Positions 12,224-36,389 of a stretch of 64,000 nucleotides of DNA are shown piece after piece; positions within the stretch are counted from its first letter, which is position 1; every line of letters starts with the position of its first letter. The stretch lies in NCBI RefSeq assembly GCF_016859125.1, contig NZ_CP069338.1, forward strand, positions 2,542,001 through 2,606,000. The letters are read 5' to 3'. Origin of the DNA: Archangium violaceum. Lineage in GTDB: Bacteria > Myxococcota > Myxococcia > Myxococcales > Myxococcaceae. The position numbers and the translations under genes are program-made. The notes under the pieces were generated by a model. The model did no database searches. It worked only from the letters and a program-made list of their open reading frames with translations, and was not told where the DNA came from.

Positions 12224-12250
12224 GCGGCTTCGATTCCCGCCGCTTCCACT
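12224..12250. repeat. Left attachment site (tRNA/tmRNA 3'-end-like direct repeat)
   Basis: This 27-base block contains TTCGATTCCCGCCGC followed by TCCACT, the pattern of a T-arm and acceptor 3' strand of a tRNA or tmRNA. It recurs at 36363-36389 with one mismatch. It lies just after the serine hydrolase stop and ~120 bases before the integrase start, as expected for the left edge of an island. There is no complete tRNA here, and the arm closing pair is mismatched, so it is a site and not a gene. Confidence 0.7.
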
Positions 12251-12367
12251 AGAAGTTACCCGCCGCTCTGAGCCGCGCCCCCCTCCTAGCAGGGGAGCGT
12301 GGCTTGCTTTTGGGGACCAAATCGGGGCACCTGGGGTCCAAATTCGGACCAAAACGGAGCCCGCGAC

Positions 12368-13549
12368 GTGGGAAACAACAGAGAGTGGACAGGGAAGTGG
12401 AAGGGGGGGCGGACCTTCAACGGCAAGGACGGCCGCCCGGTGTTCGTGCTGCGCAAGATGGTTGAGGGACGGGCCTACACCATCCACCTCGACGCCAGCA
12501 GCGAGACGGAAGCCGAGGCCGAGCTTGCGCTTTTCATGCGGGACCCCGAGGGCTACAGCACCAAGCGGGAAGCGCGGCAGCAACAGCAGGAGTCCGCCGT
12601 TTACGTCAACGCTGAGACCGTGGGCCGCTTCCTCGACTCCATGAGGCGCGCGGGCACTACTGCGCGCTACGTTGGGAATGTCGGCTTCTACTTGGCGACG
12701 TGGGCCGAAGCTCTCGCGGGCCGGGACCTGCGCACCGTCACCCTCCAAGAGCTTCTGCGGGAGTTGGCCCGGCACAAGGCAGGCAGGAAGAACCGCATCA
12801 CGGCGATCAAGTCTTTTGCATCGTGGCTGCGGGAGCAGGGCACGCTCGCCCTGGCCGAAGATCCAACCGTCTCCCTCAAGGTGCCCGCTACCCGCCCCGA
12901 GAAGGCAGTGCGGGAGAAGGGTTACAGCATCGAGACCACCGAGCGGCTTTATCGGGCGATCAGCGGGTGGGAGTTTACGAACTTCCAGCAGGAGGCAACG
13001 CGGCGCACGACGGACGTTCAGTGTGTGCGCGACGTGCTGTGCATTCACGCGAAAACCGGGATGCACGGCACCGAGATCGAGCGGCTAGCCAAGGGAGAGG
13101 GCAAGGTTGCCGTCTTCGAGGACCAAGGCGAGATCGCCGCTACGGTGACGTTCATTCACAAGAGCGGGAACGTTCACCGTCAGAGCATCGACCGTCAGAC
13201 GTTGGCGGCTGTGCGGCGGCTACAGGCGCGCGGTGCGGCGCCGGTTGATAGCCATATCCGCCGGGTTGTGGCTCGCGCCTGTGAATCCCTCGGGATCGAG
13301 CCGGTGAATTTCGGGGAGTACCGGCACAGCTTCGTTACCTGGGCTTCGGAGTGCGGGCAGGAGGTACGGCCCAAGGCGGGAGGGCTGCCGCTGTCTGCGA
13401 TTGCCGCTGTTGTCGGCCACCACTCGGCAAACACAACCAAGCGTTTTTATGACAACGTGAAGGTGCCCCCGATGATCAAGATTCCGATCAAGCTGGAGCA
13501 TCCCGAGGATCCGGCAGACCTGCCGGTCAGGCTTGCCGAATCAGCTTGA
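12368..13549 (+). CDS. Divergent tyrosine recombinase (island integrase)
   Basis: 393 residues from a GTG with GGAG eight bases upstream; the frame is open further upstream but that part repeats GGACCAAA motifs and looks like binding sites. An AP2-like arm-binding start (WTGKWKGGRTFNGKDGRPVF), a core-binding domain (~80-190) and a catalytic domain follow. Box II is EYRHSFVTWA with its Arg; box III is VVGHHSANTTKRFY with His and the Tyr nucleophile. Box I reads KTGMHGTEIERL, with His where Arg is expected, and the first His of box II is replaced by Gly. It sits beside the left att-like repeat, so it probably moves the 24-kb island. Activity is uncertain given the substitutions. Confidence 0.85.
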   Translation: MGNNREWTGKWKGGRTFNGKDGRPVFVLRKMVEGRAYTIHLDASSETEAEAELALFMRDPEGYSTKREARQQQQESAVYVNAETVGRFLDSMRRAGTTARYVGNVGFYLATWAEALAGRDLRTVTLQELLRELARHKAGRKNRITAIKSFASWLREQGTLALAEDPTVSLKVPATRPEKAVREKGYSIETTERLYRAISGWEFTNFQQEATRRTTDVQCVRDVLCIHAKTGMHGTEIERLAKGEGKVAVFEDQGEIAATVTFIHKSGNVHRQSIDRQTLAAVRRLQARGAAPVDSHIRRVVARACESLGIEPVNFGEYRHSFVTWASECGQEVRPKAGGLPLSAIAAVVGHHSANTTKRFYDNVKVPPMIKIPIKLEHPEDPADLPVRLAESA

Positions 13550-13979
13550 GGATCGCGTCCTTCTCAGCCCGCCCGGTGTTCTGCTGGGCGGGTTGCCGCT
13601 TGCGCTTGGGGGCGGGCTCGCGGCTGAAACACTCCTGAACCGCTTCGATACTGTCCAAGGTGATCATGGCGACCTTGCCCACCTTGGGAGCACGGCGCAG
13701 CGCCCCCGAGCGCAACAGCTCGAAAATCCGGGAGCGCCCGCAGCCGAGAAGGGCCTGCGCGGCGTCAATCGAGATGGCACGGGCGGCTTGAACAGGGGCC
13801 GCGTTGGCGATCCGGTTCTGCATGTCTCCGACCATCGCGCGCAGCTTGCACAACTCCGCGTAAATCTCCCGCAGCAGGTGGGGCTCGGCTCCGCTGTCCG
13901 GTGCAGGGTTTGGGGTTGGCTGGCTTTCGTCCTGAATGGCCGCCGAATCAGACGGCGACGTGATGCCTTGCGACTTCAT
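13527..13979 (-). CDS. Excisionase-like HTH protein
   Basis: 150 residues. A Pro/Ser-rich start and a coiled region precede a MerR/Xis-type helix-turn-helix (ISIDAAQALLGCGRSRIFEL, ...GALRRAPKVGKVAMI) at ~90-130, then a basic tail (PAPKRKRQP). Small proteins of this type next to a tyrosine recombinase usually act as recombination directionality factors or repressors. It is convergent with the integrase (23-base overlap) and reads away from the direct repeats at 14034-14090, which may be its binding sites. Confidence 0.7.
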   Translation of the reverse strand: MKSQGITSPSDSAAIQDESQPTPNPAPDSGAEPHLLREIYAELCKLRAMVGDMQNRIANAAPVQAARAISIDAAQALLGCGRSRIFELLRSGALRRAPKVGKVAMITLDSIEAVQECFSREPAPKRKRQPAQQNTGRAEKDAILKLIRQA

Positions 13980-14121: not shown

Positions 14122-14456
14122 TTGGTGCGGCCCGAGCTTCGGCTGCCATACCCTAGAACCCCCCACCGCGCCCGAGGCTCGGCTGCTGCCCTGGCGGCGC
14201 CCTGCTTGTTATCGCACCCGGGCTTCGGCTGCCGGAGCGCTGGCGCCCGCCACCGGCCCGAGCTTCGGCTGCCGCGCTGCTGGTGCGCTCCACCGCGCCC
14301 TGGCGTGCTCCACCAGCCTAAGGCTCGGCTGCTGCCCTGGTGGGCTCCACCGGCGCAAGGCTCGCGCCTTGGTGCCTTCCAATGCGCCTTAGGTGCCGCT
14401 CCCGCTGCGCTGGCGGCTCAACCGCGCCGAGCTTCGGCTGCTGCCCTGATGGGCTA
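14122..14456. repeat. GC-rich hairpin repeat array, leading block
   Basis: Degenerate copies of a ~41-base unit built from CCCGAGCTTCGGCTGC, GCCCTGGTG and CTCCACCG. Units here are more diverged than in the main block (for example CCTAAGGCTCGGCTGCTG). The block ends near the 3' end of the small minus-strand gene at 14503. No coding sense is evident. Confidence 0.75.
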
Positions 14457-14502
14457 CTAATTAATTCCATGCAGGATTGGATCGGGAGACGAGGAGACAG
14501 CG

Positions 14503-14826
14503 CTAGAGCGGCCACAAACCGGCGCCTCGCTCTAGCTGACAGATGATCCGCATCATGGACTTGTCGCCCCGCCTGTAGCTGGTGCGGGGCGCTTCGGATG
14601 TTTCGTCGAGAAGCTGAAGTCCGCGTGTCTCGTCGAGGCGCAACAGTTTCCAGCCTGAGTTCTCGCCGCTGGCGCTCCCTCCTCGTACTTGCCAGACGCG
14701 CATCACAGCGTGCCCCTCGCTAGTGTAGCCGCAGGCGTGAACCTCAACGACCCGAGAGAAGCCGTCATACCGGATCTCTAAGCGGCGCTTGGTGCGTAGC
14801 GCCTCACATGCCGTCTGGATGTTCAT
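14503..14826 (-). CDS. Small conserved hypothetical protein inside the repeat array
   Basis: 107 residues from an ATG with AGGAAGG upstream. The sequence has a beta-rich, WYL-like look (RRLEIRYDGFSRVVEVHACG, then GHAVMRVWQVRGG, WKLLRLDE and YRRGDKSM). Its codon use and lower GC differ sharply from the repeats on both sides, so it is a real gene that the array flanks. Similar short proteins occur alone in many bacteria. The role is unknown; WYL-like folds bind nucleic acid or nucleotides, but membership is a guess. Confidence 0.6.
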   Translation of the reverse strand: MNIQTACEALRTKRRLEIRYDGFSRVVEVHACGYTSEGHAVMRVWQVRGGSASGENSGWKLLRLDETRGLQLLDETSEAPRTSYRRGDKSMMRIICQLERGAGLWPL

Positions 14827-14980
14827 AGCTCGATCCTTCCTCTCGTGAAGTGGGGCACCCCATGCTGCTTCTCCAAGATGGGCCCTTGTGAAAGGGAATT
14901 CATATAGGGTCACTACCCTTGTTTGGTTGCTAAGTGCCTGAGGGGGCAGAGATGGGGTCAGGCGATTCGTAGGGCATAAC

Positions 14981-17900
14981 CGGCCCGAGGCTCGGCTGCT
15001 GCCCTGGTAACCATCTACCGCGCCGCTGACGCGCTCCACGGGCCCGGGGCTCGGCTGCCGTGCCCTGATGCCGCTCGCGCCCCTGGTCCGGCGCCCGAGC
15101 TTCGGCTGCCGCGCTGCTGATGCCCTCCCCGGGCCCGAGGTTGGCGCCGTGTCTGCTTTCGCGCCCTTGTGGGCTCCCCTGATCCGAGCTTCGCGCCCTG
15201 GTGCCGCTGCCTGTCTGCCACCGCGCCCAAGGATCGCGCCGCGCCGCGCCGCTAATGCGTTCCACCGGCCCGAGGCTCGGCTGCCCTGGTGCCGCCACCG
15301 CGCCCGAGCTTCGCGCCGCTGGTGGCCGCCACCGCGCCCGAGCTTCGGCTGCCGTGCCCTGGTGGCCTCCACCCCGCCCTGGTGGCCTCCACGGGCCCGA
15401 GGCTCGGCTGCCTGTCCTGGTGGTCTCCACCGCGCCCTGGTGCGCTCCACCGCGCTATGGTGCGCTCCACCGCGCTATGGTGCGCTCCACGGGCCCGAGC
15501 TACGGCCGCCGCGCCGAGGTGCCACTGCCGCCGCTGGTGGCGTTCCCGCCGCGCCCGAGCTTCGGCTGCTGTGCTGCCCTGGCGTGGTCCACCGCGCCGC
15601 TGATGCGCTCCACCGGCCCGAGGTTCGCGCCGTGTCTGGCGCTCTACTGGCGCGGGAATGGCGCCGCGTCCTGGCGCTGTCCCCGAGGTTTGGTCGGCGT
15701 ACCTGGTGCCCTCCACCCGCGCCCGAGGTTCGCGCCCTGGTGCCGCTGCCTGTCTGCCACCGCGCCCGAGGTTCACGCCACGCTGCGCCGCTGATGCGTT
15801 CCACCGGCCTGAGGTTCGCTCCCTGGTGGCCTCCACGGGCCCGAGCTTCGCCTGTTGCCCTGGTCGCACCCTCCACGGCGCCCGAGCTTCGGCTGCCGCG
15901 CCGCTGGTGGCCTCCACCGGCCCAAGGTTCGCGCCGCGCCCTGTCCGCCGCGTCCGCGCTTCAGCCGCCGGTGCTCTGGCACCATCCATGGGCTCCAGGT
16001 TCGCGCCGCGCCTTGGTGGCTCTACCGCGCCCGAGGTTCGCGCCGTGGCTACTGCTGTGCCCGAGGTTTGCGCCGCGTTGTGGAGCCTCCGCTACGCCTG
16101 AGCTGGAGCCATCCCGGGGCGCAATCCACGGGCCCTAAGAATCGGCCGCGGTGCCCTCTGGCGCCATCCACTGGCCCGAGGTTCGCGCTGTGCCCGAGCT
16201 TGGGCTGCCGTGCTCTGGCGTCCTGAGTCCATCCACGAGCCCGAGCTTCGGCTGCCGCGCCCTAGTGGCCAGCGCCGCGCCCTGGCGCCCAACACCGCGC
16301 CGCTGATGCCCACCGTTGGCCCGAGGCCCGTCTGCCGCGCTGCTTGCGCCTTCCACGGGTCCGAGGCTCGCGCCGGGCTTGCCGCTGCGCTTGCCGCCTC
16401 CCGGGTGGCTTCCATCACGTCCGAAGTTCGCGCCGTGTCTGTTGCCGCGCCCGAGCTTCGGCTGCCGCGCTGCTGGCGCCCTCCACCGTGCCCGAGCTAC
16501 GGCTGCTGGTGCGCTGGTGGGCTCCACCGGCCCGAGGCTCGGCTGCTGCCCTGGTGCCGCTGCCGCGCCGCTGGCGCCCCCTCCACCGCGCACCGCGCCT
16601 AAGCTTCGGCTGCCGTGCCCTGGTGGCCTCCACTGCGCCCGAGGTTCGGCTGCCGCGTCGCTGGTGGAACGCCGCGCCCTGGTGCGCTCCACCGGCCCGA
16701 GGTTCGGCTGCCGCGCCCTGGTGGCCTCCACCGCGCCCGAGGTTCGCGCCCTTGCAGCCCTGGTGCCGCTGCCGCGCTCTGGTGCGCTCCACCAGCCCGA
16801 GCGCCGCGCCCTGGCTGCCGCTGCGCCGTGATGCCCGCCGCTGGCCCGAGGCCCGGCTGCCGCGCCGCTGGCGTCTTCCACCGTGCCCGAGGTTCGCGCC
16901 GCGCCCCGGTGGGCAGCACCGCGCCCGAGGTTCGCGCCGTGTCTGCTGCCGCGCCGCTGGCGCTCTCCATGGGCCCGAGGTTCGGCTGCCGCCGCTGCGG
17001 GTGGATCTACCGCGCCTGAGGATCGCGCCGTGCCCTGGCGCCCTGGTTCCCTCCACTGACCCGAGCTTCGGCTGCCGTTACGCTGGTACCCTCCACCCAC
17101 GGCGCCCGAGGATCGCGCCGCGCCCTGGTGCCGCTGCCGCGCCGCTGGCGCTTTCCACGAGCCCGAGGTTCGCGCCGCGCCTCGGTGGCCTCCATCGCGA
17201 CCGAAGCGCGCCGCGCCCTGGTGGCTGGTTCCCACGGCGCCCGAGCTTCGGCTGCCGGTGTGCTGGCGCCCTCCACCGCGCCCGAGCTTAGGCTGCCGCG
17301 CCGCTGCCGCGCCCTGGCGTTGCTCCATCGGCCCGAGCTTCGGCGGTCCCCTGGTTGCCTCCACCGCGCCCGAGGTTCGCGCCGCTGGCGCCCTCCACCG
17401 CCCGAGCGCCGCGCCCTGGCTGCCGCTGCGCCGTGATGCCCACCGTTGGCCCGAGGCGCGGCTGCCGCTGCGCTGGTGCGCTCCACCGGCCGAGGATCGC
17501 GCCGTGTCGGCTGCCGCGCCCGAGCTTCGCGCCGCCCCCGGTGCCCTCGCCGCGTCGCTGGCGCCCTTCGCCGTGCCCGAGCGCGCCGCGTCTGCCGCTG
17601 CGCCGCTGCCGCGCTCCACCGGCCCGAGGTTCGGCTGCCGCGCTGCTGGCGCTCCACCGCGCCCGAGATTTGCGCCGCTGGCGCCCTTCGCCGCGCCCGA
17701 GCTTCGGCTGCCGCGCTGTGGCGCCGCTGCCGCGCCCTGGTTGCGTCCACCGCGCCCGAGGTTCGCGCCGCACCCTGGTGCCACTGTCGCGCCTTGGTGG
17801 CGTCCACCGGCCCGAACTCCGGCTGCCGCGTCCGTCGCGCCCCTGGTGCGCTCCACCGGCCCGAGGCTTGCGCCGCGTACTGGCCCGAGGTTCGCGCCGC

Positions 17901-18665
17901 GTACTGGTGCGCACCATCGGCCCGAGTGCCGCGCCCTGGCGCCTTCCACCGCGCCGCTGATGCCCGCCGCTGGCCCGAGGCTCGGCTGCCGCGCTGCTGG
18001 CGCCCTCCACCGGTCCCGAGGTTCGCGCCGCGCCCCGGTGCCGCCGCCCTGGTGGCCCCCTCCACTGCGCCCGAGCTTCGGCTGCCGCGCCCTGGTTAGG
18101 GCTTTCACCGGCCCGAGGCTCGGCTGCCGCGCCCTGGTGGCCTCCACCGCGCCCGAGTCTCGGCTGCTGCCCTGGTGGGTTCCGCCGCGCCCGAGCTTCG
18201 GCTGCCGCGCCGCTGGTGCGCTCCACCGGGCCCTGGTGTCGGCCACCGGGCCTGAGCTTCGGCTGCCGCGCCGCTTGCGCCCTCCGCTGCGCCCAAGGCT
18301 CGCGCCGCGCCCGGCTGCCGTTGCGCTGCGCTGGGGGCGCTGCTGGCGTCCCACCACGCCCGAGGTGCGCGCCGCGCCGTGTCTGCCGCGCCGCTGGGGC
18401 GCTGCTTCGCCTGGGGTCGCGCCGCGCCCGAGGTTCGCGCCGTGTCCGCTGCTGCGCCGCTGGTGCCCGCCACCGCGCCCGAGCTTCGGCTGCCGCGCTG
18501 CTGGTGCCCGCCACCGCGCCCGAGCTTCGGCTGCCGCGCTGCTGGTGCCCGCCACCGCGCCCGAGGTTCGCGCCGCGCTGTGTCTGCCGCTGCGCCGAGG
18601 TTCGCGCCGCGCTGTATCTGCCGCTGCGCGTGGCCACCGTCGCGCCCTGGCGCCGTACTCGAGCA
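14981..18665. repeat. Main block of the 41-base hairpin repeat array (~3.7 kb)
   Basis: Dozens of degenerate tandem units. Three near-identical copies (GAGCTTCGG or GAGGTTCG at 18481, 18522, 18563) are spaced exactly 41 bases. Each unit has two small palindromes, CCGAGCTTCGG and GGTGGCCTCCACC, that could fold into adjacent hairpins. Half-units also duplicate: CGCGCTATGGTGCGCTCCAC occurs twice in tandem at 15451-15490 after a variant copy. Because 41 is not a multiple of three, the array is not a protein repeat in one frame, yet the minus strand is stop-free for 843 codons (16135-18666). I see no gene in it. Confidence 0.85.
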
Positions 18666-18783
18666 CTCAGGAGCCGCGCCGAATAGCGGCACACTCCAGA
18701 GGCCCGGATTGCCGCGCAACCGGGGCGCCAGGTCTGCGCCCCTGCCCCCAGGGCGCAGCGTCGGACGGAGCGGCCCCGGGCTA

Positions 18784-19010
18784 TCGGCAGCCGAACCTCG
18801 GGCGCGGTGGAGGCACCGGGGCGCGGCAAGCTGAGCCTCGGGCGCGTGGAGCCCACCAGCGGCGCGGCAGCGCCACCAGGGCAGGCAGCCGAGCCTTGGG
18901 CACGGTGGAGGGCACCAGAAGCACGGCGGACCCCTCTGGGGGCAGGGGGCCAGAGGGCGGCAGCCGAGGCTGGGGCGCGGCGGAGGGCTCCAGCGTGGGC
19001 GCACCTCGCC
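18784..19010. repeat. Inverted block of the same repeat family
   Basis: About five units in the opposite orientation to the main block: GCAGCCGAACCTCGGGCGCG, GTGGAGGCACC and so on are reverse complements of the units upstream. A ~120-base non-repeat stretch separates the two orientations. The block ends about 150 bases before the next gene. Confidence 0.7.
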
Positions 19011-19156
19011 CCTCCCGCTCAAGTCGGGTTGCCGTGCTAACCCCCGCAGTCGGGTGGGGCTTCCCCTCCACTGGCCCCGCATGTTACCTGGGGTTCATCC
19101 GTCCTGGTAAACAGAAGGTTTAGACGCTCTCCCGCTGTCCTCACCCCAAGGTGTCC

Positions 19157-19756
19157 ATGCCGAACGCCCCACATGCGTGCCGGATAGGGGCTCGTGTTGC
19201 CCGCGCCCGGCCCCATCCGCTCCTGTCCGCCTTGCTGGCCGTGCTGCTGCTGTGTCCCGTCGCGTGCGCCAGTGGCCAACGCCCCGAGGTGTTCCGCGCC
19301 ATGCGGGACGCGCTCGCGGAGTTGGACGACTTCGGCGCGCTGCTGCTGGAGGCCGGACTCCCGGCGGACACGCTTCCCACCGGCCCGGAGTTGACGCCCG
19401 AGGAGGCCACCCGGCTGCGGGTCTCCTTCGGCCTGTACCCGTCCACCTCCCGCACCTCCGGCCCGAGGCTCGTTGCGGATGTGCTGCTGCGGGAAGTCAT
19501 CGCGGGCGGCGCTCCCGTCATGCGCTCCGCCCTGGACGCTCGCCTGCTGCGCTACCAACACCTGCGGGTCATGGGCCCTGATGGTTTCCTCTCCGCCGCC
19601 CTCACCGGCACCCCCGCGCAGTGCGTGGGCCCGGTGGAGGTGAGAAACGGCGTCCTGCGCGCGGGCGAATTCGAGGTGGGGGGCTTCTACTCGCCCGATG
19701 GAAACGGCGGCTGGGTACACGTCGTCTTTCGTCCCGCTGGCGAGCGCAGCCCGTAG
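19157..19756 (+). CDS. Putative lipoprotein of unknown function
   Basis: About 199 residues. The N-terminus is Arg-rich, followed by a hydrophobic run and a lipobox-like PVACASG, so export and lipidation are likely. The mature part has no family I recognise; it is helical at first (FRAMRDALAELDDFGALLLE) and ends in a beta-rich GEFEVGGFYSPDGNGGWVHV. It opens a run of signalling genes: a pseudokinase starts 38 bases downstream. Start chosen at the ATG at 19157; 19151 (GTG) is equally possible. Confidence 0.6.
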   Translation: MPNAPHACRIGARVARARPHPLLSALLAVLLLCPVACASGQRPEVFRAMRDALAELDDFGALLLEAGLPADTLPTGPELTPEEATRLRVSFGLYPSTSRTSGPRLVADVLLREVIAGGAPVMRSALDARLLRYQHLRVMGPDGFLSAALTGTPAQCVGPVEVRNGVLRAGEFEVGGFYSPDGNGGWVHVVFRPAGERSP

Positions 19757-19793
19757 TCCGCACCCGCAGACTTTCCAAAGACAGGAGTTTCCC

Positions 19794-20990
19794 ATGCCCT
19801 CAACACCAAGAGAAACGCCCCGGCGCGACAGTCCCCGCCGCTACGCCGTCAAATCGGAAGACTACCGTTTCACCTTCGAGGCGGGCGAATACCGTTACGA
19901 GGTGACGGAGCCGCTTGTACTCCATCCCTACTATGACTCGCTTTTCATCGCATGGCGTCGGCTCCTCTCGGGCGGGCCGCGTCACATGGTCGAACTCAAG
20001 AAGGTGAACATGGTTCCCGGGCGCGACGCACGCGCCAGCGCACGGGAAGAGGTTCGCCTTGCGTCGCTGCTGCGTCACCCCAAGATTGCCCGCGTCCATG
20101 ACTTCATCGTCAACAAGGGGATTCCCTATGTCGTCATGGAGCACATGAAGGGCTGTTTCCTTCTCACCGTCACACATGCGGCGGCGCTCGTGGAGAAGAG
20201 GCTTTCCCCTGCCTTCGCCGTCTACGTTGCCGCCGAGGTGGCGGACGCGCTCGAATACGCGCACAACGCCGAGAATGAAACCGGGGCGCCGCTCCGGCTC
20301 GTACACCGGGCCGTGGGGCCCCTGCGCATCCGGCTTGGGGCGGATGGCCGCGTCAAGCTGTGCAACCTCGGAGCGGCTTATTCCGAGCTGGCCGGACGCA
20401 TGGTCACCCCGCGCGATCTGCTGAGAGGAGATCCGGCCTACATCGCCCCGGAACTGCTGCGCTCCATGTGGGCAGCCCTCGAAAGCAAGACGGACCCACT
20501 CACCCCGAGGGAGCTTGACGGCAGGGCGGACATTTTCTCCCTCGGGTTGGTACTGCTGGAGATGCTGACGGCGAAATATCCGCTTGACCCGCTCGGACTG
20601 GTGCCGAGCCGTCCGGCGACGCGCTTTCCCCAGGGCCTGCGCGCCGAGCGGCCGACATGGGTGGAGCTTGAGGTTTTGTTTAATCGCGTCCTCAGCTTCG
20701 GGCCCGAGGAGATAGAGCGCGAAGCGGATTTGGTCCCCGAGCCTTTGCGGAAAATCTTGGGCAAGGCACTACAGCCCAACCCGGAGAACCGCTACAGCAC
20801 TGCCGCCGAGATGCGCGATGACTTGCGTTTCTATCTTCGCGCGTCCGGGGCCTCCAGCTTCGGACGGCCCGAAGTGGCGGCGGAGCGGAAAGCGATTTTA
20901 AACGAGGCGGCCGAGCGCAAGCTGCTGGCGGCGCAGACAGTCGAAAGAGGCGTGCTCCCCAACCCGGAAGAGTTCCTGGACAATGGGTAG
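19794..20990 (+). CDS. Eukaryote-like Ser/Thr pseudokinase
   Basis: 398 residues with AGGAG upstream of the ATG. The kinase fold is recognisable (VELKKVNMV with the VAIK-type Lys, EEVRLASLLRHPKIARVHDF, YVVMEHMKG, DIFSLGLVLLEMLTAKYPLD), but the catalytic loop reads LVHRAVGPLRI, so HRD has lost Asp and the metal-binding Asn is gone, and DFG is replaced by NLG. It should bind but not phosphorylate, and may act as a scaffold or allosteric partner. No membrane segment. Its stop overlaps the next HTH gene by eight bases, so they are co-translated. An active kinase lies two genes downstream. Confidence 0.82.
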   Translation: MPSTPRETPRRDSPRRYAVKSEDYRFTFEAGEYRYEVTEPLVLHPYYDSLFIAWRRLLSGGPRHMVELKKVNMVPGRDARASAREEVRLASLLRHPKIARVHDFIVNKGIPYVVMEHMKGCFLLTVTHAAALVEKRLSPAFAVYVAAEVADALEYAHNAENETGAPLRLVHRAVGPLRIRLGADGRVKLCNLGAAYSELAGRMVTPRDLLRGDPAYIAPELLRSMWAALESKTDPLTPRELDGRADIFSLGLVLLEMLTAKYPLDPLGLVPSRPATRFPQGLRAERPTWVELEVLFNRVLSFGPEEIEREADLVPEPLRKILGKALQPNPENRYSTAAEMRDDLRFYLRASGASSFGRPEVAAERKAILNEAAERKLLAAQTVERGVLPNPEEFLDNG

Positions 20991-21465
20991 ACATACCAAG
21001 CCCCCCGCCGCTGTCGCAGACACTCGACAGCCGACCGAAGGCCCCAAAGCTCCGCCAAGGCTTGCGAAGCACATGGGAGAAGTCGCGCGGAATGCCCGCA
21101 AGCAGGCAAGGCTGACGCAGGCGGACGTGGCCGAGCGGGTTGGGCTTGCTACGGAGGTTTATGGCCGCCTGGAGCGCGGCGGAATGCTTCCGAGCGTGCC
21201 CACCCTGCTAAAGCTGTGCTTTGTCCTCCGGGCGGACGCCAACGCGCTGCTAGGGATTGGCTCCGGCTCGCTGCCGGTACTGGTGGACGAGCCGAAGCAG
21301 GAGAAAGAGGAAGAGGCCCCCCGGGTTCGGCAAGTGCTCCGCCACTTGCGGCGGCTGACGCCTACCCAGCTCAATGCCATTGGACACGTTGCTAGCACCT
21401 TCGCCAAGTCAAACGCGGCCCCGCCAGACGCAAGGGACGAATGCCTACAGGAACAGAGCACATGA
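20983..21465 (+). CDS. XRE-family HTH regulator
   Basis: 160 residues with a Cro/CI-type HTH at ~30-90 (NARKQARLTQADVAERVGLA, then YGRLERGGMLPSVPTLLKLC). A charged linker and a C-terminal helical segment follow. It overlaps both neighbours (8 bases with the pseudokinase, 4 with the next regulator), so all three are one transcription unit. It is a paralogue of the next gene. Targets cannot be read from the sequence. Confidence 0.85.
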   Translation: MGRHTKPPAAVADTRQPTEGPKAPPRLAKHMGEVARNARKQARLTQADVAERVGLATEVYGRLERGGMLPSVPTLLKLCFVLRADANALLGIGSGSLPVLVDEPKQEKEEEAPRVRQVLRHLRRLTPTQLNAIGHVASTFAKSNAAPPDARDECLQEQST

Positions 21466-21881
21466 CCCCCGAGGAGTTGATGACCACCATCGGACCACTC
21501 GCCCGAGAGGCCCGAGAACGGCTGAAGATGAATCAAGCCGAGGTTGCGCGTGCGGCTGGGATTTCGTCTGTCGTCTATGGAAAGATTGAACGCGGGTTGA
21601 TGTTGCCCGCCGTCCCCACACTGCGAAAGATAACCCTGGCGCTCGGCATTTCGTCGGACGTGCTGCTGGGCATCAGTCCGAAAGAAGTAGCGCGGACGAT
21701 GAATGAGCCCGCGCCCGAGGTGCCACTGAGCCCCGAGCTTCGCAAGCTGACGCGCATCCTGCGGGCATGGCCTGACGAAAAGGTCCGCTTCCTGGCCCGT
21801 ATGGCGAAGCTGCTGGACTCGCCTTCCGTGCGGGTGGAGTTCTTGAAGGACTCCGAGAAGGAGTCCGAGCCCGAGGACTAG
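21462..21881 (+). CDS. XRE-family HTH regulator, second paralogue
   Basis: 139 residues if it starts at the ATG within ATGA that overlaps the upstream stop; an in-frame ATG also lies at 21441. The HTH reads REARERLKMNQAEVARAAGI, then YGKIERGLMLPAVPTL, close to the upstream gene. Both share a C-terminal LxxLTRxLR...LARMAKLL type helix. A pair of tandem regulators suggests heterodimer formation or duplicated control of the adjoining kinase/DUF2381/SitA genes. Confidence 0.83.
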   Translation: MTPEELMTTIGPLAREARERLKMNQAEVARAAGISSVVYGKIERGLMLPAVPTLRKITLALGISSDVLLGISPKEVARTMNEPAPEVPLSPELRKLTRILRAWPDEKVRFLARMAKLLDSPSVRVEFLKDSEKESEPED

Positions 21882-22063
21882 GCGCCGCTTTAGCGATGGG
21901 GTTGGAGCGTGGGTAGGGGGCGACCGTGCCCTGCGTGGCCGCATTCGGGAAGGGGGTGCCCACCGCCCCGGCTCCAGCTTCCAACCGGGCGGGCATCCGC
22001 GCGACTGCACCAACCACACCCGCCGGGTTCTGCTAGAGTGGTGAACCTTCGGAGGCTCCCGGC

Positions 22064-24220
22064 TTGGTCATCCACCTTCCCCAGAAAGGCGCCAAGATTG
22101 GCGCTTATGAAGTCATCGAGCAACTTGGCCAGGGCGGCGGCGGCCACGTCTACAAGGCCGAGCGCGGCGGGCGTAATTACGCCGTCAAGGTCCTGGCTAC
22201 CCTGGACGTGGACGGCTGGACGCGGCGCGAGGTCACAGCCCTTGTCAATCTTCCACTCGATAACGTGGTGCGCTTTGTTGGCTATGACAAGTGGCCGGAT
22301 GCCGAGACGGGTTATCCCTGCATCATCATGGAGTTTGTCTCAGGGTTGACGCTCGATTTCTACGTGCTGCGCCACAACCCATCCACCCGGCGGGCGCTCA
22401 CAATCTTCTTGAAGATCGCCCGGGCGCTTCGGGAAGTCTTCCGGCTCGGGGTGCTGCATCGGGACATCAAGGAATCCAACATCATCATTCGCTCACATGA
22501 TGGCGAGCCGATATTGATAGATTTTGGCTTCAGCTCCGTGGCTGGCATGCCCACCGTGACAGAAGCGGGAAGGTTGCCGCCGGGAACGCCAGAGTACCGG
22601 AGCCCCGAGGCCATGCGCTTTCTCGCGAGCATGACGGAAGAGGATTCTTATACATATAGCCTCTCGGACGAGCTGTGGGCGCTTGGGGTGACTCTGTACT
22701 GGCTGCTTACGGACGTGCTGCCGTTTGGCAACCGAAGGGAGCCGGGGCTTAATGCTCGCATCCGCCTGGACTCCCCGCCGCATCCTTGCGTCGTCAATCC
22801 GCGACTGCCCGAATCGGTCAGCCGTTTGTGTCTGCGCATGCTGGAGAAGGATCCACAGTCACGCTTTCAAAACCACGACGAGATATGTGGCGCCGTTGAG
22901 GCGCTGTTGTCTGCACATGAGGGGGATGCTGGCTGGGATGTGCCGTTGATTGATCCGGAGTCCCCCCACCGTGTGACAACAGTGGGGGGGCCGAACGCGG
23001 ACAAGCCGAAGAATGAGCAAGAGAAGGAGGTAGCCCAGTGGATAGGAGAGAAGCCCCGGCGGGGGCTTTGGAGGGAGGGTGATGCACTCCAGCCGCCCGC
23101 GCCGGGCAAGCTGCCGCCGCCCGTGGGTTTCCTGGAAGGGCAAGCGCGGGCCTCGCCCGACGTGCCCGCCGTGGACGTAGCCCCGGGGGAGGTACAGGAG
23201 GACGCAGGCGCCGCACCGCCCCGGGGGGAGCCCGCAGGGCTGGTGGCTGGCGCAGCCGCGCCCCCGGTGCAGGGGCGGGCCGAAGCTCGGGCACCGCCCG
23301 CCCGCCGGGGGGCCTCGGGCGTGCGCCGTTGGGTGTTAGGCGCGGGGCCCTTCCCCACGGGGCGCCTACTGCTGGACTTGCTCAAGCGGCCCCCTCTGGT
23401 CCTGGTGGCGGTGCTCGCCCTGGTGGCGCTCGTGGTGGGCTCCGTGGGCGCGTGGCGCTCGGAGGCTCCGCCCGTTGCGCTGGCAGGGAAGACGGCGCCC
23501 CCACCTAGTGCGTCCGCCGTGGGTGGGCAGACGGAAGGGGCCGCACCCGTCCGCGAAGTGGCGCAGCCGCACAACCCAGCCGAAGCTAACGCGGGCGCGG
23601 CGCCCGTGAGGGCCCAACCCCCCGCGCCTCTTCCTAACGCCATGCCTCGCAAACCTGACACGACGAAAAAGCCGGATGACGCACCCAAGCACCAGACGCA
23701 ACGCGCGGGCAGGCTCCCCGCCTTGAAGAAGGCCGCCGCTGTGAGTGCTACATGTGCGCTGATTGAGGGATGCACCGGAGGCACGGCCCAGGTGCGCCCC
23801 ACGCCCGCGCCCGTCGAATGCCCCGCCGATTGGCAGGCGACACACAAAAGATTAGGCATTGGTAGCGGAACCGTCGTGCTGCAAGGGGAAAGGGGTTATG
23901 CAGGAGATACGGTCCCTCTGCCCGAGGGGCCCGTTAGGGTTGTGACTGACGACGTTACCGGTCTGCCCGAGGGCACCTTGCTTTCGGGGACGTGGCAGCT
24001 TGGAGAAGGCCGCATTTATAGCACCTTCACCCAGGCGCAGATTCCAGGCGGAGACACCTACCCCGTTTGTCTGGTCATTGGCCGAGATACCCCGGCAGCC
24101 ATGCCGAGTGGCCCGGACTGTCCCGAAGGGCTGGGGGATTGCCCCGCGCCCGAAAGCAGACCGGGCAACGTGAAGACTTTCACTGTTCTTGACGTCTACC
24201 CAAAAGGCTATCGGTTCTAG
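22064..24220 (+). CDS. Transmembrane Ser/Thr protein kinase
   Basis: 718 residues from a TTG with GGAGG upstream. The kinase domain spans ~12-290: glycine loop LGQGGGGHVY, Lys in YAVKVL, catalytic loop LHRDIKESNI, DFGFSS and the PEYRSPEA segment, all intact. A Pro/Ala-rich linker leads to one membrane helix at ~443-463 (LVLVAVLALVALVVGSVGAW), then an outer-side Pro-rich region and a C-terminal domain of ~130 residues (CPADWQATHKRLGIG...PKGYRF). It is a sensor-like eukaryotic-type kinase in the inner membrane. It precedes DUF2381 and SitA genes, a layout often met in myxobacteria. Confidence 0.9.
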   Translation: MVIHLPQKGAKIGAYEVIEQLGQGGGGHVYKAERGGRNYAVKVLATLDVDGWTRREVTALVNLPLDNVVRFVGYDKWPDAETGYPCIIMEFVSGLTLDFYVLRHNPSTRRALTIFLKIARALREVFRLGVLHRDIKESNIIIRSHDGEPILIDFGFSSVAGMPTVTEAGRLPPGTPEYRSPEAMRFLASMTEEDSYTYSLSDELWALGVTLYWLLTDVLPFGNRREPGLNARIRLDSPPHPCVVNPRLPESVSRLCLRMLEKDPQSRFQNHDEICGAVEALLSAHEGDAGWDVPLIDPESPHRVTTVGGPNADKPKNEQEKEVAQWIGEKPRRGLWREGDALQPPAPGKLPPPVGFLEGQARASPDVPAVDVAPGEVQEDAGAAPPRGEPAGLVAGAAAPPVQGRAEARAPPARRGASGVRRWVLGAGPFPTGRLLLDLLKRPPLVLVAVLALVALVVGSVGAWRSEAPPVALAGKTAPPPSASAVGGQTEGAAPVREVAQPHNPAEANAGAAPVRAQPPAPLPNAMPRKPDTTKKPDDAPKHQTQRAGRLPALKKAAAVSATCALIEGCTGGTAQVRPTPAPVECPADWQATHKRLGIGSGTVVLQGERGYAGDTVPLPEGPVRVVTDDVTGLPEGTLLSGTWQLGEGRIYSTFTQAQIPGGDTYPVCLVIGRDTPAAMPSGPDCPEGLGDCPAPESRPGNVKTFTVLDVYPKGYRF

Positions 24221-26630: not shown

Positions 26631-27944
26631 TCAGGCAAGTGTGGCCAGACTCTCGGGCAGCACGGCCAGACCCAACAGGCCCTGGTAGAGCACCTCCATG
26701 GTGCGTGCGAAGCTTTGGGGCCGTTTGTCGCGAGTCGGCAGGTGCGTGCGCACCAGGGCCAGCAGGTTGTAGGCCAGCAAACGCAGCCAGCTGAGCACCA
26801 GGGGTGCATTGCCTCGCAGGCTGGGCGAGGCGCTGTCCTCCTCCAGCACCACGTCCGCTGTCCAGTTGGGCCCGTTCTCAATCCCCCAGTGCCGGCGTAC
26901 CAACGTCAGCATCCGCTCCGGGGACAGTTGCCCTGTGGGAATGGAGGTGAGGAACAGCCGCGTCTCCACCTTCGGCAGCTCGCCGTCTCTGGTTCGCGTC
27001 TGCCTCACCCATACCCATTGCTGGGCGCCGGGAAAGTCCTCCTCTGGCGGCTTGTCCACCACCCTCAACTCCCTCTCCACCCACTCCCCGCTCGTCCGCT
27101 CGCGCGTGCGCACCTTCACTGGCGCCACCGCCAGCGCCACCCACGCCTTGTCATGTAGCCGGTGGAAGTTCTCCTTGAGCGCCATCAGGTAGTGCTTGCC
27201 CGCCTCCCTCACCACCCGCGCATTGGCCGCGCTCGTCATTCCCGCGTCCACTGTCACGTACTCGAAATGCCGCCCGAACTTCTCCACCACCCGTTTGAAC
27301 AACTCCGGGAACGCCGTCGCCTCTCCCTGCTTGCCTTCCAGCAACTTCTGGTCGAGCACCGGCTGGGCCGCGCTGCTGGTGAGACTGGCGCGCAGCGCGT
27401 ACGGGTACCAGTACTCCCGCCCCTGCTCATCCTTCGTCGTGTGGCTCGGCTCGCACGGCGGCTGCCCCGGCGTGCTCTCCCCCGCCTTCCCGTCAATGCT
27501 GACGACGCCCCGGGCGAAGAGCTCATGGCGTATCAGCCCCACTTCCAGGCCTCGGTGCACCATCTGGTGCACCTCCTGCTCCAACCCCTCTGGCTCCAAC
27601 TTCCCCAGCAGCCTATCCAACGTCGTGTCGGACACCGGCCGCTTCAGCCCCTCGGGCGCCGTGCCTTCGCGCAGCATGTCCTCCCCCAGCGCCTCGGCAT
27701 GCCTCAACACCCGCCGCCCCACCGCCATCGCCTGCACCAGCAGCATCAACATCGCCGCCAGCGGATGCCTCTGTCCCCGGCGGGCCCGGGGGTCCTTTAC
27801 CTCCTTGAATGTCAGCCCCAGGCTCGCCATCATCCTCTGCACGCGGGAGGGGGTTTCCTGCTCGTCCTTCTTCCCCTTCCCGTTTCCCGCTTGGGGGGTG
27901 GAGGGCCCGCCAGTCCTCCCGCCCCGGTTTTTCTTCCCACTCAT
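26631..27944 (-). CDS. ISAs1-like family transposase, copy A
   Basis: 437 residues, intact. After a basic Gly/Lys-rich leader come the DDE_Tnp_1-associated N-domain (KEVKDPRARRGQRHPLAAML), the first catalytic Asp in VVSIDGKAGE, a second Asp in YVTVDAGMTSAANARVV and the Glu of RRHWGIENGPNW, all features of the ISAs1 (H-repeat) group of the IS4-related families. It is identical in length to copy B and differs at only a few residues. Protein is complete although the element's left end is interrupted. Confidence 0.9.
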   Translation of the reverse strand: MSGKKNRGGRTGGPSTPQAGNGKGKKDEQETPSRVQRMMASLGLTFKEVKDPRARRGQRHPLAAMLMLLVQAMAVGRRVLRHAEALGEDMLREGTAPEGLKRPVSDTTLDRLLGKLEPEGLEQEVHQMVHRGLEVGLIRHELFARGVVSIDGKAGESTPGQPPCEPSHTTKDEQGREYWYPYALRASLTSSAAQPVLDQKLLEGKQGEATAFPELFKRVVEKFGRHFEYVTVDAGMTSAANARVVREAGKHYLMALKENFHRLHDKAWVALAVAPVKVRTRERTSGEWVERELRVVDKPPEEDFPGAQQWVWVRQTRTRDGELPKVETRLFLTSIPTGQLSPERMLTLVRRHWGIENGPNWTADVVLEEDSASPSLRGNAPLVLSWLRLLAYNLLALVRTHLPTRDKRPQSFARTMEVLYQGLLGLAVLPESLATLA

Positions 27945-31252: not shown

Positions 31253-31263
31253 CCTTGTGGGGC

Positions 31264-31998
31264 TATCTCGGTTATGAATTCTTCGACCTGCTGCGGGCCT
31301 ATGCGCAGCTTTACGAGGATGCGCCCCGGGCCTCTACCTTCGCGGAGTTGCGCGAGATTGGCGAGCGTTTCGGGCGTGTCATTGGTCCTAACAGTGTGCG
31401 TATTCTCGTGGTGGTGGCAACAGCGGCGATAGGGGAAACGGCGGCTCTCGCTTCCAAGGCCCCAAAGCTCCCCGGATTTACGCAAGCGTCGGAGAGAGTC
31501 GCGACTCGTACCGGGTTGGGCCTGCTGGAGACGGCAACCGGAGCCGAGCGCCTTATTGTCTCTGTGCCAGAGGGGACGATCCGCGTGGTGTTGGCGCCTC
31601 ATGCCGTGGCCATGGCTGCCCGGGGCGTTGCCGCTGGGAGTCCTGCCCCGAGTCGGGGTAAGCTCCTGCTGAACGGACACAGGGCGTGGGGGTCGTTTGG
31701 TGGCTTCAAGTCGGCTATGGGAAAGGCGGGCTCCGGAAAGGAATGGCATCACATCGTGGAGCAGACTAAAGGCAACGTGAAGCGGTTCGGGGGCAACGCC
31801 CTGCAAAACACCGAGAACATCATTGCACTAGACAAGACTCTTCACACCGAGGTGAGCCGCCTCTATTCTTCGATTCGCTATGATATTACCGGTTCGTCCA
31901 CATTGACCGTTCGGAAGTGGCTAAGCAGTCAGTCTTACGAGGCGCAGCGGGCGTTTGGTTTTCTTGCAATCAAGAACGTTCAGAGTGGGATATGGTGA
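31264..31998 (+). pseudogene. SitA-like toxin, C-terminal part with nuclease-like domain
   Basis: Picks up the toxin frame directly after the duplicated target (…LWG|YLGYEFFDLLRAY). It ends in the toxin domain: GKEWHHIVEQTKGNVKRFGG, then QNTENIIALDKTLH and SRLYSSIRYDITGSS, about two-thirds identical by eye to the toxin tail at 1-573. The fragment has no own signal sequence and could not be exported if translated alone, but the immunity gene overlaps its stop and is still intact. Confidence 0.82.
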
Positions 31999-32493: not shown

Positions 32494-32990
32494 CCGGGCA
32501 GGCGAAGCTCGGGCCGGTGGAGGCCACCAGGGCAGCCACGGCGGGCACCTCGGGCCGGTGAAGGTTACCGGGGGGCACGGTAGGCGAAGCTCGGGCGGGT
32601 GGAGGCCCCCAAGGCGGCCCGGCAGCCACCACGGCGGGCACCTCGGGCCGGTGGAGGCCAGGGCAGCCACGGCGGGCACCTCGGGCCCGGTGGAGGCACC
32701 AGGGCCGGGCGGGCGGTGCTCGGGCCCGGGGTAGAGGCCACCAGGGCGGCCCGGCAGCCACAGCGGGCACCTCGGGCCGGTGGAGGCCACCGGGGCACGG
32801 CAGGCGAAAGCTCGGGCGGGTGGATGCCCCCAGGGCAGCCCAGCAGCCACGGCGGGCACCTCGGGCTGGAAGGCCACCAGGGCGCGGCAGGCGAAGCCCG
32901 GGCCCGGTGGAGGCCACCAGGGCAGCCCGGCAGCCACGGCGGGCACCTCGGGCCGCTGGAGGCCACCAGGGCACGGCAGCACATGCGACG
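32494..32990. repeat. Satellite array related to the 14-19 kb repeats, opposite strand
   Basis: About a dozen units such as GGCACCTCGGGCCGGTGGAG, GCCACCAGGGCAGCCACGG and GGCGAAGCTCGGGC, which are reverse complements of the 41-base units at 14.1-18.7 kb. Two unit types alternate (one with CGGGCACCTCGGGC, one with AGGCGAAGCTCGGGC). It starts about 25 bases after the immunity gene stop. More regular than the main array, so probably younger. No gene seen between 32472 and 33244. Confidence 0.82.
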
Positions 32991-34084: not shown

Positions 34085-34200
34085 AGCGGCCCCCCTCGGG
34101 CTTAGTGGAGGCCCCCAGCCACGGCGGGCACCTCGGGCCGGTGGAGGCCACCAAGGCACGGCAGCCGAAGCTCGGGCCGGGGGGGCCCACCGGGGCAGGG
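34085..34200. repeat. Third small satellite of the repeat family
   Basis: Two to three units (GGCGGGCACCTCGGGCCGGT, GGAGGCCACCAAGGCACGGC, AGCCGAAGCTCGGGCCGG) in the same orientation as the block at 32494-32990. It lies between the methyltransferase remnant and the group II intron. Confidence 0.7.
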
Positions 34201-34407
34201 GATTAGTAGGCCATGGCATCGGCGCCAGAAGCCCGAGCGAGGGGCAAAGGGCTCGCCACCTATCGCGCGGCGAGGGGTCCAAGGGGAGTAGAGGGGGGCG
34301 GGAGGCGCGGTGCTGCTCGGGTTCGTCGGCGCCAACTGCGAGGGTCCGCTTCCGCTCGCCCTCTCGCCGAGTCTCACCCGCAGCCCGTTTCCTCCTCGCC
34401 TCTCATC

Positions 34408-34440
<33 letters not shown>

Positions 34441-34464
34441 TCGGACAGATTTCACGTGGGGCAT

Positions 34465-35780
34465 TCAGCGTAAGAGGCTTTGCAATTCCAGCACTCCGAG
34501 ATCGCGGTGCACCTCGGCGTACGTGAAACGAGCCGTTGACGACGGCAACTTGTGGCGCCTCCTCAGGAGATTCCTCACCCTCTGCGCGACGTGGATGTCC
34601 ATCACGCGAAAGCTGGGGCGGGGCGTACCATAGGCGAAGTAGCCCGCCCACCCGTGGAGGAACCGGTTGAGCTCATCCCGTATCTCCTCCCAGCGCTCGG
34701 TTCTGCCGCGCCAGAGAAGCTGGCTGAGCCGCTTCCGGGCTGCGCTCATTGCCTTCTTCGAGGGCCGGGCCCCCAGGTACCGGTTGCCGGTCTTCTTATG
34801 CACCATCGGACCAAACTCGTACCCCAGGAACCGGAAGTGTTCCTTCCGCGCGTCGCGAATGCTCGTCTTCTCCTCATTCAACTTCAGCTTCATCCCCTCC
34901 AACCATCCCCTTACCTGCGCCAGGGCCTGCGCCGCGCCTCTGCTACTCAGCACGACGAAGTCATCCGCGTAGTTGACAAGCACCGCTCCGCTCCGCTTCA
35001 TCAGGTCGCTCCTCGCAAAGGCCTTCAGCAGCCGGTTGATGTAGATGTTCGCCAGCAGCGGCGAAATCACACCTCCCTGCGGCGTCTCCTGCTTGGACCT
35101 CTTGCCTCCGCTGTACCTCGGCCGCCCCAGTTCGTCTCTCTCTTCGATTGGCACCTTCAGCCACATCTTCACCAGATGCAGCACCGCCTTATCCGACACC
35201 CTCCTCGCCACGCACTTCATCAACTCGGCGTGGGGAATCGTGTCGAAGTACTTCGAGAGCTCCGCATCGACGACCTCGGTCCTCCCTCTGCCCAGCTCCT
35301 GATGGACCTTCCGCACCGCCTGCACGCCGATGCGCTCGGGGCGATACCCGTACGCCGCATCATCCAGGTCAGCTTCGAAGATAGGCTCCAGGATGAGTTT
35401 GGCTGCCGTCTGAGTGACTCTATCCTTGATGGTCGGAATCCCCAGCGGCCTCTCTCCTCCTCCTGGCTTTGGAATCAGCACCCTGCGCACTGGCTGAGGC
35501 CGTACCGCTTCTCCTGCAACTCGCGTTGCAGCTCTTTGAGCCACCGTTCCTCTCCGTACTCCGCCACCTGCTCGAAGGTCTGCCCATCGACTCCGGCTGC
35601 GCCTCGGTTCGCCTTGGCTCGCTTCAGCGCCTCCACCAGGACATCCCAGCGATAGAGCTTGTCGTACAGTTGGTAGAACCGGAACGTCGGCTCCGCTTTG
35701 GCCTTCACGTAGAGCTTCTCTTGGAACTCTTCAAGCTTCGTAGGGGTTTTCAGGCTCACGCCAATCTCCCGCTCGTCCAT
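34465..35780 (-). pseudogene. Group II intron reverse transcriptase/maturase, frameshifted
   Basis: The N-terminal part (35780-35475) has FYQLYDKLYRWDVLVEALKR and ANRGAAGVDGQTFE; the rest (down to 34465) has VRRVLIPKPGGGERPLGIPT, the RT active site VNYADDFVVL, a maturase domain (GYFAYGTPRPSFRVMD) and an end segment. The two parts join near 35495, where one base seems missing (TACGGCCT in place of TACCGGCCT), giving YGLSQCAGC and a stop. All RT motifs are otherwise present. It is inactive unless the shift is a sequencing error. Confidence 0.85.
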
Positions 35781-36362
35781 TCCTCGAGCAGCACTCTGAA
35801 CCAGGGCCCCTTCCCTCCACGGTCGTTACCCGCTTCCCAGGTACTACGAGCCCCTCCGACTCCTGGGCGTGCCACGCCCTTTCGGCGTGTTCGGTCTTCA
35901 CCCCACACGCACAGGTCTCCCGTGTTGCGCACTCCACCTTTTGCACACATGCCGCGCCCATTACCCCGGTGGGTCACCAGGCTTGGTCGATTGCTGCCAC
36001 CTGGTACCTCGGCCTTCCCCGCTTTTGGGACGGGTCGGCACCCACGCAGTCCTCTCGGGGCCTGCTCAGGCTTCACTCGCGTTGCGGCCTGCGCACTCGC
36101 TCGACCTCCTTTCGGGGCCTTCTTCTTCGGGGCTTCGGCTCAGAGGGTCACCCCTCTTCACCGCCCGATGGCTTCCGAGGTGCATCGACAATTCCTCGGG
36201 TGGGACTTCCACCCACTGGTGACGTGCACCTTTCACGGCGCACCCAAAAAAGGACCAAAACGAACGGACGCGCCTGGACTCGCCCGGACAGATGGGCGCC
36301 CCATTTTCAGAGGGAAAACGGGGGTGTGCCTCTAGTCCCGAGTGGGGGCGGATCCGGCCTTA

Positions 36363-36389
36363 GCGGCTTCGATTCCCGCCGCCTCCACT
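36363..36389. repeat. Right attachment site (tRNA/tmRNA 3'-end-like direct repeat)
   Basis: Same 27-base block as 12224-12250 with one difference (GCC TCC here, GCT TCC there). It has the TTCGATTCCCGCC core and CTCCACTT end. It lies 15 bases from the stop of a second integrase fragment. A GGACCAAAACG motif lies ~110 bases to the left, as it also does beside the left site, so both ends share integrase-binding-like sequence. Confidence 0.7.

What the first reader, a model, noticed from the sequence alone, without database searches (positions are those of the whole stretch)
14122..19010. Large hairpin-rich 41-base repeat array in a genomic island
Most of the DNA between 14.1 and 19.0 kb consists of degenerate tandem units with two palindromes per unit (CCGAGCTTCGG and GGTGGCCTCCACC). 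Three adjacent units are exactly 41 bases apart. The same unit appears in smaller arrays at 32.5-33.0 and 34.1-34.2 kb in the same island. It does not resemble CRISPR (no unique spacers), a coding repeat or a known satellite that I can name. A structured RNA, a protein-binding array or a recombination substrate would all fit.
Basis: partly seen in the sequence, partly recalled or inferred. Interest (0 to 1): 0.75.

Follow-up and report, generated by a model that had tools for sequence, protein, structure and literature searches.

The report
Repeat array in myxobacterial toxin element
A long, fast-changing block of repeated DNA sits inside a mobile element that carries a bacterial rival-killing toxin, apparently at the joint where the element's moving machinery and its cargo have been swapped between species.

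Summary
The array is real: 153 modules of ~20 bp (two alternating kinds, hence the 41-bp unit) at 14128-18656, a 0.5-kb interruption at 14.46-14.97 kb, and a short inverted arm at 18785-18979; inverted blocks lie at 32.5-33.0 and 34.1 kb. It is not hairpin-rich: hairpins are below shuffled expectation, pairs do not covary, spacing is not in frame, Rfam gives nothing convincing. It is part of an integrative element (12224-36389) bounded by copies of the tmRNA 3' end, with integrase and excisionase-like genes on its left and kinase and SitA5 toxin cargo on its right. 10 of 12 related elements (integrase >=68% identical, several genera) have a self-repetitive GC-rich region there, in opposed arms in 7 of 8 tested, but with lineage-specific units. 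In the window's lineage the unit recurs inside 21 of 25 right ends that keep the inner terminus (1 of 16 that lack it); another lineage's own unit in 8 of 13. Relationships left and right of the array conflict. Best reading: a satellite flanking the cargo, kept alike by recombination, acting as junction for module exchange. Selection for this, or a binding protein, is not shown.

The parts
12224..12250 (+). left attachment core (copy of the tmRNA 3' end)
   Evidence: 27 bp, 96% identical to 36363-36389; the 19-mer core is also in the tmRNA gene at G000:C1:6721768-6722131
12299..13549 (+). tyrosine integrase
   Evidence: phrog_1 integrase E 9e-13; Pfam Phage_integrase below cutoff (E 0.0044)
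13527..13979 (-). excisionase-like HTH protein
   Evidence: phrog_66 excisionase E 1.5e-4; HTH_17 E 0.0023, below cutoff
14128..14443 (+). main array, first segment
   Evidence: PWM parse
14460..14975 (.). non-repeat interruption of the array (limits approximate)
   Evidence: GC 0.59, no modules
14981..18656 (+). main array, second segment, units in + orientation
18657..18784 (.). centre between the two opposed arms, conserved in three species
   Evidence: 93.6% to G001 (94 bp), 82.9% to G005 (129 bp)
18785..18979 (-). short inverted arm
19151..24220 (+). first cargo genes, incl. Ser/Thr kinases (19698-20990, 22064-24220) and HTH (20983-21465)
   Evidence: Pfam
31255..31998 (+). ORF with the last part of a SitA5 escort domain; the window's toxin gene appears interrupted by an insertion upstream
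   Evidence: SitA5_escort E 2.3e-17, 63.4 bits (cutoff 160), profile 201-262 only; homologous DNA in L063 is contiguous where the window has an extra ~1.7 kb
32497..32980 (-). right block of the same units, inverted
34105..34178 (-). units next to the right terminus, inverted
34202..34290 (+). right terminus, inner part
34291..36243 (-). group II intron with maturase, inserted in the right terminus (limits approximate)
   Evidence: RT/maturase 34465-35544, Rfam RF02003 and RF00029; L067 lacks the insert
36244..36389 (+). right terminus, outer part, ending in the right attachment core 36363-36389

Best explanation
The array is a satellite inside a family of tmRNA-end integrative elements that carry SitA5 toxin-immunity cargo in myxobacteria. 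Units lie on both sides of the cargo: a large array, usually in two opposed arms, between the excisionase-like gene and the cargo, and one to a dozen units between the immunity gene and the inner part of the right terminus. Shown: its place, polarity, lineage-specific units alike on both flanks, and conflicting relationships of the modules on its two sides. Inferred: the units grow and shrink by local duplication and are kept alike by recombination, and homologous recombination in them has swapped mobility modules and cargo between elements. Not shown: that it is selected for this, or that a protein binds it.
For: Element limits and att copies. Int-xis-array-cargo order shared with G005 and G001. 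Self-repetitive region (>=0.25 repeated 11-mers in a 500-bp bin within 9 kb of int; mark chosen after seeing the table, two elements sit at 0.25) in 10 of 12 elements with int >=68% identical and >=6 kb of sequence, against 1 of 7 with int <=59%. Opposed arms in 7 of 8 arrays by k-mers (L196 has one orientation) and in G001 by PWM. Own-lineage units (>=9 shared 11-mers) inside 21 of 25 g1/g11 right ends that keep the inner terminus, all inverted; in 8 of 13 right ends of g23/g26 with the units of G112/G076/G068. Identities to the window: G005 95.4% left and 72.7% right; G001 82.4% and 94.0%. Trees: left, window+G005 split off at 99 and G001+L072 at 97; right, G005+L072 split from window, G001 and L188 at 100. 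The centre of the window's array is G001-like, so that switch lies within the + arm. Sequence upstream of right ends is unrelated in 164 of 210 pairs, yet 142 of those 164 keep >=100 bp of right-end homology, median 84%. In L191 and L192 the flanks are 96% identical but the arrays align only in pieces.
Against: L072 and L188 (2 of 12) have little or no array (48) though their integrase frames are open, so it is not needed for the element to persist. Units are absent from 15 of 16 g1/g11 right ends that lack the inner terminus. Few exchange events are visible, and a neutral satellite at a tolerated spot would also collect breakpoints. In the right tree G001 groups with L188, not with the window alone, although window-G001 is 94.0% and G001-L188 70.4% identical; the alignment is gappy. 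Orientation of right-end units differs between lineages (inverted in g1/g11, 7 of 8 direct in g23/g26), so no single recombination geometry fits all. One g1 end (L220) shares more 11-mers with the G076 array (15) than with its own genus's, and 3 of 13 g23/g26 ends reach the mark with g1 arrays.
Confidence: 0.5

Rival explanations
1. Neutral satellite: a seed unit in a gene-free spot of the ancestral element expanded by replication slippage and unequal crossing-over; the position is inherited and the recombination is incidental.
For: Little or no array in 2 of 12 close relatives; fast turnover between otherwise near-identical elements; no sign of structure or coding constraint.
Against: Strict polarity and opposed arms recur in several genera, and units at two separate places resemble each other within a lineage; drift with no recombination between the places should let them diverge.
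Confidence: 0.33
2. Protein-binding array: an element protein, for example the excisionase-like or the cargo HTH protein, binds the polar unit to control excision, expression or partition; units and protein co-diverge.
For: A unit is part of most g1/g11 right ends with the inner terminus; polar, many copies, next to an HTH gene; units differ by lineage.
Against: GGACCAAA-like repeats at both element ends are better placed to be the integrase's own sites (sequence; inference); no binding evidence; many degenerate copies, and loss in some relatives.
Confidence: 0.13
3. Structured RNA or hairpin DNA array.
For: Consensus holds CCGA-n3-TCGG and GGTGG-n3-CCACC dyads (folds); one of 7 pairs predicted on 26 units has changes on both sides (2 sequences); the G068 array has a modest hairpin excess (z 2.5 at arms 4 and 5).
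Against: No excess pairing in dyads, fewer hairpins than shuffles in the window, no folding excess, no Rfam match of weight.
Confidence: 0.03

Closest known systems
SitAI toxin-immunity cassettes on myxobacterial mobile elements (Mx-alpha and others; PMC5562445 and PMC8546572, passages read)
   Same: Cargo is a SitA5-family toxin (SitA5_escort above cutoff in the G005, G112 and G086 elements) on mobile DNA.
   Different: The passages read mention no tmRNA-end element with flanking repeat arrays; Mx-alpha is described there as roughly 100 kb of prophage and mobile elements, this element is 24 kb.
tRNA/tmRNA-targeted integrative genomic islands (Islander, PMC4383910, start of abstract seen in a search listing)
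   Same: Tyrosine integrase at one end, att copies of the tmRNA 3' end at both ends.
   Different: Lies away from the tmRNA gene; the genome holds 29 copies of the 19-bp tmRNA end; large repeat array next to int.
Bacterial intergenic palindromic repeats (REP/BIME; recalled)
   Same: Short, degenerate, GC-rich intergenic units in clusters with alternating modules.
   Different: At E <= 0.001 confined to this element family's places in the genus; no hairpin excess in the window; lineage-specific units.
Integron attC arrays (recalled)
   Same: Repeats next to a tyrosine recombinase gene.
   Different: Units abut with no room for cassette genes, no hairpin conservation, units are not the att sites.
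Eukaryotic foldback elements with arms made of subrepeats (recalled)
   Same: Opposed arms made of tandem subunits, variable length.
   Different: Tyrosine integrase and att sites; the arms are internal, not the ends.

Membership tests
tmRNA-targeted integrative element | att direct repeats derived from the tmRNA 3' end flank the element | tested here: met
tmRNA-targeted integrative element | tyrosine integrase near one att | tested here: met
   Pfam match below cutoff
tmRNA-targeted integrative element | resides in the tmRNA gene | tested here: not met
   tmRNA gene lies at 6.72 Mb; none in the window
tmRNA-targeted integrative element | excises as a circle | not testable with these tools
   needs DNA from cells
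SitA5 toxin loci | SitA5 escort domain above curated score | tested here: met
   met in the G005, G112 and G086 elements; the window's own ORF is partial, 63.4 bits against a cutoff of 160
Structured RNA / hairpin array | compensatory changes and folding excess | tested here: not met
   one search shows one pair of 7 with a both-sides change
CRISPR array | near-identical repeats with unique spacers | tested here: not met
   modules abut and vary
Coding repeat | unit spacing kept in multiples of three | tested here: not met
   A-module spacings by remainder 0, 1, 2: 21, 27, 23 of 71
Integron | gene cassettes each followed by attC | tested here: not met
   modules abut, no room for genes between them

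The most novel reading that the evidence does not exclude
The arrays are a selected cassette-exchange platform: polar, lineage-specific satellites on both flanks of toxin cargo that promote swapping of kin-discrimination toxins between elements, with lineage-specific units limiting exchange to compatible elements.
Probability: 0.2. Interest if true: 0.82.

Novelty: new variant of a known kind. Interest (0 to 1): 0.6.

Why it matters
Myxobacteria define who is kin partly by the SitA toxins they carry, reported at 25 to 80 sitAI loci per genome (PMC8546572, passage). How such cassettes are shuffled is not explained in the passages I read. A position-conserved, sequence-divergent satellite at the joint between mobility genes and toxin cargo, with conflicting relationships on its two sides, gives a concrete and testable place for that shuffling, and would be an unusual bacterial case of satellite-like DNA that stays alike at two distant sites of a mobile element.

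Tried and rejected
Structured RNA: dyad pairing, folding, hairpin counts and Rfam negative or nearly so. Protein-coding repeat: spacing not in frame. Array as the integrase's attachment or arm sites: att cores and GGACCAAA-like repeats lie at the element ends, the array 1.9-6.8 kb inside; judged unlikely by inference. Phage or plasmid origin: no match at E 1e-5 of the integrase or of 16400-18600 in the phage and plasmid collections. A clear switch at the right block: window and L040 share 98-99% there, but that is the group II intron; the terminus parts beside it are 86.5 and 95.1%, so it is not claimed. Conserved motif in the centre across lineages: only short or weak matches between lineages, longer ones within. 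Weak matches of the unit model outside the genus (22.0-25.9 bits; 7 matches in 6 of 53 genomes) were taken as chance, except G032:C1:8727714, which abuts a right terminus. In the own genome at E <= 0.1 six more loci match weakly; one (9408405) abuts a right terminus and one (12045861) lies about 1.1 kb after a SitA5 gene; not pursued.

Changes on re-check: right ends were first counted only where the inner terminus was present, and two such ends had been left out; one search adds these and the 16 right ends without the inner part. Confidence in the best explanation was lowered from 0.55 to 0.5 for this and for the G001+L188 grouping in the right tree; the weight went to the neutral and binding rivals.
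Full report
What is there. A PWM parse of 14.0-19.05 kb finds 81 A modules (GCGCCCGAGSTTCGGCTGCC-like) and 72 B modules (GCGCCCTGGTGSCCTCCACC-like) at score >=8, against 1.1 and 2.2 on average in 20 shuffles. A and B alternate loosely, giving the 40-41-bp unit, but runs of A or B alone occur. The parse runs from 14128 to about 18656 in + orientation, with a non-repeat stretch at about 14.46-14.97 kb. From 18785 to 18979 units are inverted, as are the blocks at 32497-32980 and 34105-34178.

Not hairpins, not coding. Of 11 column pairs in the two dyads none pairs more often than shuffled columns (the lowest fraction of shuffles reaching the observed value is 0.116). RNAalifold on 26 units predicts 7 pairs, one with a both-sides change in 2 sequences. 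A 901-nt stretch folds no better than 20 shuffles on either strand. Perfect hairpins with 5- or 6-bp arms are depleted (34 vs 65, 1 vs 22). Of the eight array segments in that call, G068 shows a modest excess (z 2.5 at arms 4 and 5), the window and G086 a depletion, the other five neither. Nine of nine single units fold within 1.6 sd of shuffles. A-module spacings are 21, 27 and 23 of 71 by remainder 0, 1, 2. Stops are fewer than in 100 shuffles (45 vs 64 on average), but the longest open stretch, 841 codons, is inside the shuffled range (maximum 1046). Rfam finds two group II intron parts in the window and, over the array, one match below its gathering score.

The element. A 27-bp sequence at 12224-12250 recurs at 36363-36389 (96%). 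Its 19-bp core is in the tmRNA gene, whose full copy lies at 6.72 Mb. The core occurs 29 times in the genome and its reversed control not at all. Between the two copies lie a tyrosine integrase and an excisionase-like gene, the array, kinase, HTH and transposase genes, part of a SitA5 toxin gene, the inverted blocks, and a right terminus split by a group II intron.

Relatives. A sequence-only model of the unit (R1, from 26 of the window's units) was run on 59 genomes. At E <= 0.001 it matches 5 of the 6 genomes of the genus, the window's own counted, and 6 of the other 53, there with one or two weak matches each. Read, the hits in the genus lie in the array position after an integrase, next to a right terminus, or about 1 kb after a SitA5 gene. 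At E <= 0.1 the own genome has six further weak loci. G005 has a larger array at the same place: 193 modules against 147 in the window at score >=12.

Position conserved, sequence not. 33 of 96 family genomes have integrase matches at E 1e-40, 50 matches in all. I read what follows 23 of them: all 15 that are >=68% identical over most of the protein (one 122-aa fragment at 88% was left out), and 8 of the 34 that are <=59% identical. Of the 15, L197, L202 and L203 have under 6 kb of sequence. Of the other 12, 10 reach 0.25 repeated 11-mers in a 500-bp bin within 9 kb (0.25, 0.25, 0.34, 0.52, 0.62, 0.71, 0.79, 0.90, 0.95, 0.98); L072 (0.08) and L188 (0.10) do not. Of the 8 distant ones L200 was too short; of the other seven L201 reaches 0.37 in one bin, the rest 0.01-0.11. 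The mark of 0.25 was set after seeing the table. In the arrays of other genera the window's modules hit 0 to 4 times per 8 kb at score >=14. Array-to-array 11-mer sharing shows three groups, g1, g23/g26 and g14 with one g15 array, plus G082 (g15) on its own.

Two arms. Units in the first part of an array point one way and those in the second part the other in 7 of 8 arrays tested; L196 is the exception. G001's remnant also has opposed arms. G112 has further small blocks downstream in the orientation of its first arm, and a motif that L192 holds 7 times in one orientation is held 3 times in the other by L191. The 128-bp centre of the window is 94% identical to G001 and 83% to G005. I have no explanation for the opposed arms.

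Right ends. A 251-bp right terminus was sought in 96 genomes; 30 have a match at E 1e-6, some of them only over the last ~45 bases at the att (at most 8 candidates per genome were scored). I fetched a part of these. In g1/g11 I examined 41 right ends: 25 keep the inner ~90 bp of the terminus, 16 do not. With >=9 shared 11-mers as the mark (set after seeing the table; shuffled ends share 0.35-3.15 on average), 21 of the 25 carry g1 units, all inverted (19 of 23, 2 of 2), but only 1 of the 16. None of the 41 reaches the mark with the G112 array; L220 does with the G076 array (15). In g23/g26 8 of 13 carry units of the G112/G076/G068 kind, seven direct and one inverted; 3 of the 13 also reach the mark with g1 arrays. 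One g14 end shares 11 with a g15 array. The cargo side is variable: of 210 pairs among 21 right ends with enough sequence, 164 have no upstream homology of 150 bp, and 142 of these keep >=100 bp of right-end homology, median 84%.

Exchange at the array. Window-G005 identity is 95.4% left of the array and 72.7% right of it; window-G001 is 82.4% and 94.0%. Left tree: window+G005 against the rest 99, G001+L072 97. Right tree: G005+L072 against window, G001 and L188 100. Within that second group the tree puts G001 with L188 (95), not with the window, although G001-L188 is only 70.4% identical; I take this as an effect of a gappy alignment, but have not shown it. The centre is G001-like, so that switch lies in the + arm. 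This is a small number of events. L191 and L192, 96% identical on both sides, show no switch, but their arrays align only in pieces.

Cargo. Elements of G005, G112 and G086 carry SitA5 genes above the curated score; those of G112 and G086 have AHH nuclease ends, and G086's neighbour gene matches Imm11. 37-55 SitA5 matches occur per genome in the genus at E 1e-10, far more than the right ends found (capped), so probably a minority lie in these elements.

Literature. I read found passages, not whole texts, of PMC5562445, PMC10047993 and PMC8546572. They say sitAI cassettes are numerous, modular and often on mobile DNA; none of the passages shown mentions flanking repeat arrays or tmRNA-end elements.

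Judgement. That the array is part of a SitA5 integrative element family is well supported. That it is where recombination joins and swaps modules is supported by two lines but few events. That it is maintained for that purpose is open.

Noticed in passing
G000 genome-wide: 29 exact copies of the 19-bp tmRNA 3' end are scattered over the genome (reversed control 0), one of them in the tmRNA gene; several carry left- or right-terminus-like sequence, suggesting many past or present elements.
   Followed up: partly
window 12299-13549 and alignment A2: In 11 of 11 aligned integrases the motif where a first catalytic arginine is expected reads TGMH (motif expectation recalled); possibly an altered active site.
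   Followed up: no
window 26631-27944, 29771-31084, 45952-47280: Two ORFs of the same length (437 aa; the first is a DDE transposase by Pfam) and a third set of similar ORF sizes suggest copies of one insertion sequence; the second lies in the SitA5 gene region.
   Followed up: partly
window 34291-36243; L040; L041: Group II intron inserted in the right terminus; 98-99% similar copies at two other sites of the genome, suggesting recent spread.
   Followed up: partly
window 1-920 and G000:C1:2541245-2542039: Another SitA5 gene begins just before the window; window 244-916 is 64-70% similar to the toxin region of this element family.
   Followed up: no
L063, L189, L191, L195: DUF2381/TIGR02268 genes stand near Ser/Thr kinase genes (by search in window and L063; by eye for the others) as recurrent cargo.
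   Followed up: no
L068 5829-9278: A right terminus runs into left-end-like sequence, with another att copy about 3 kb upstream: an element remnant between two att copies in G001.
   Followed up: no
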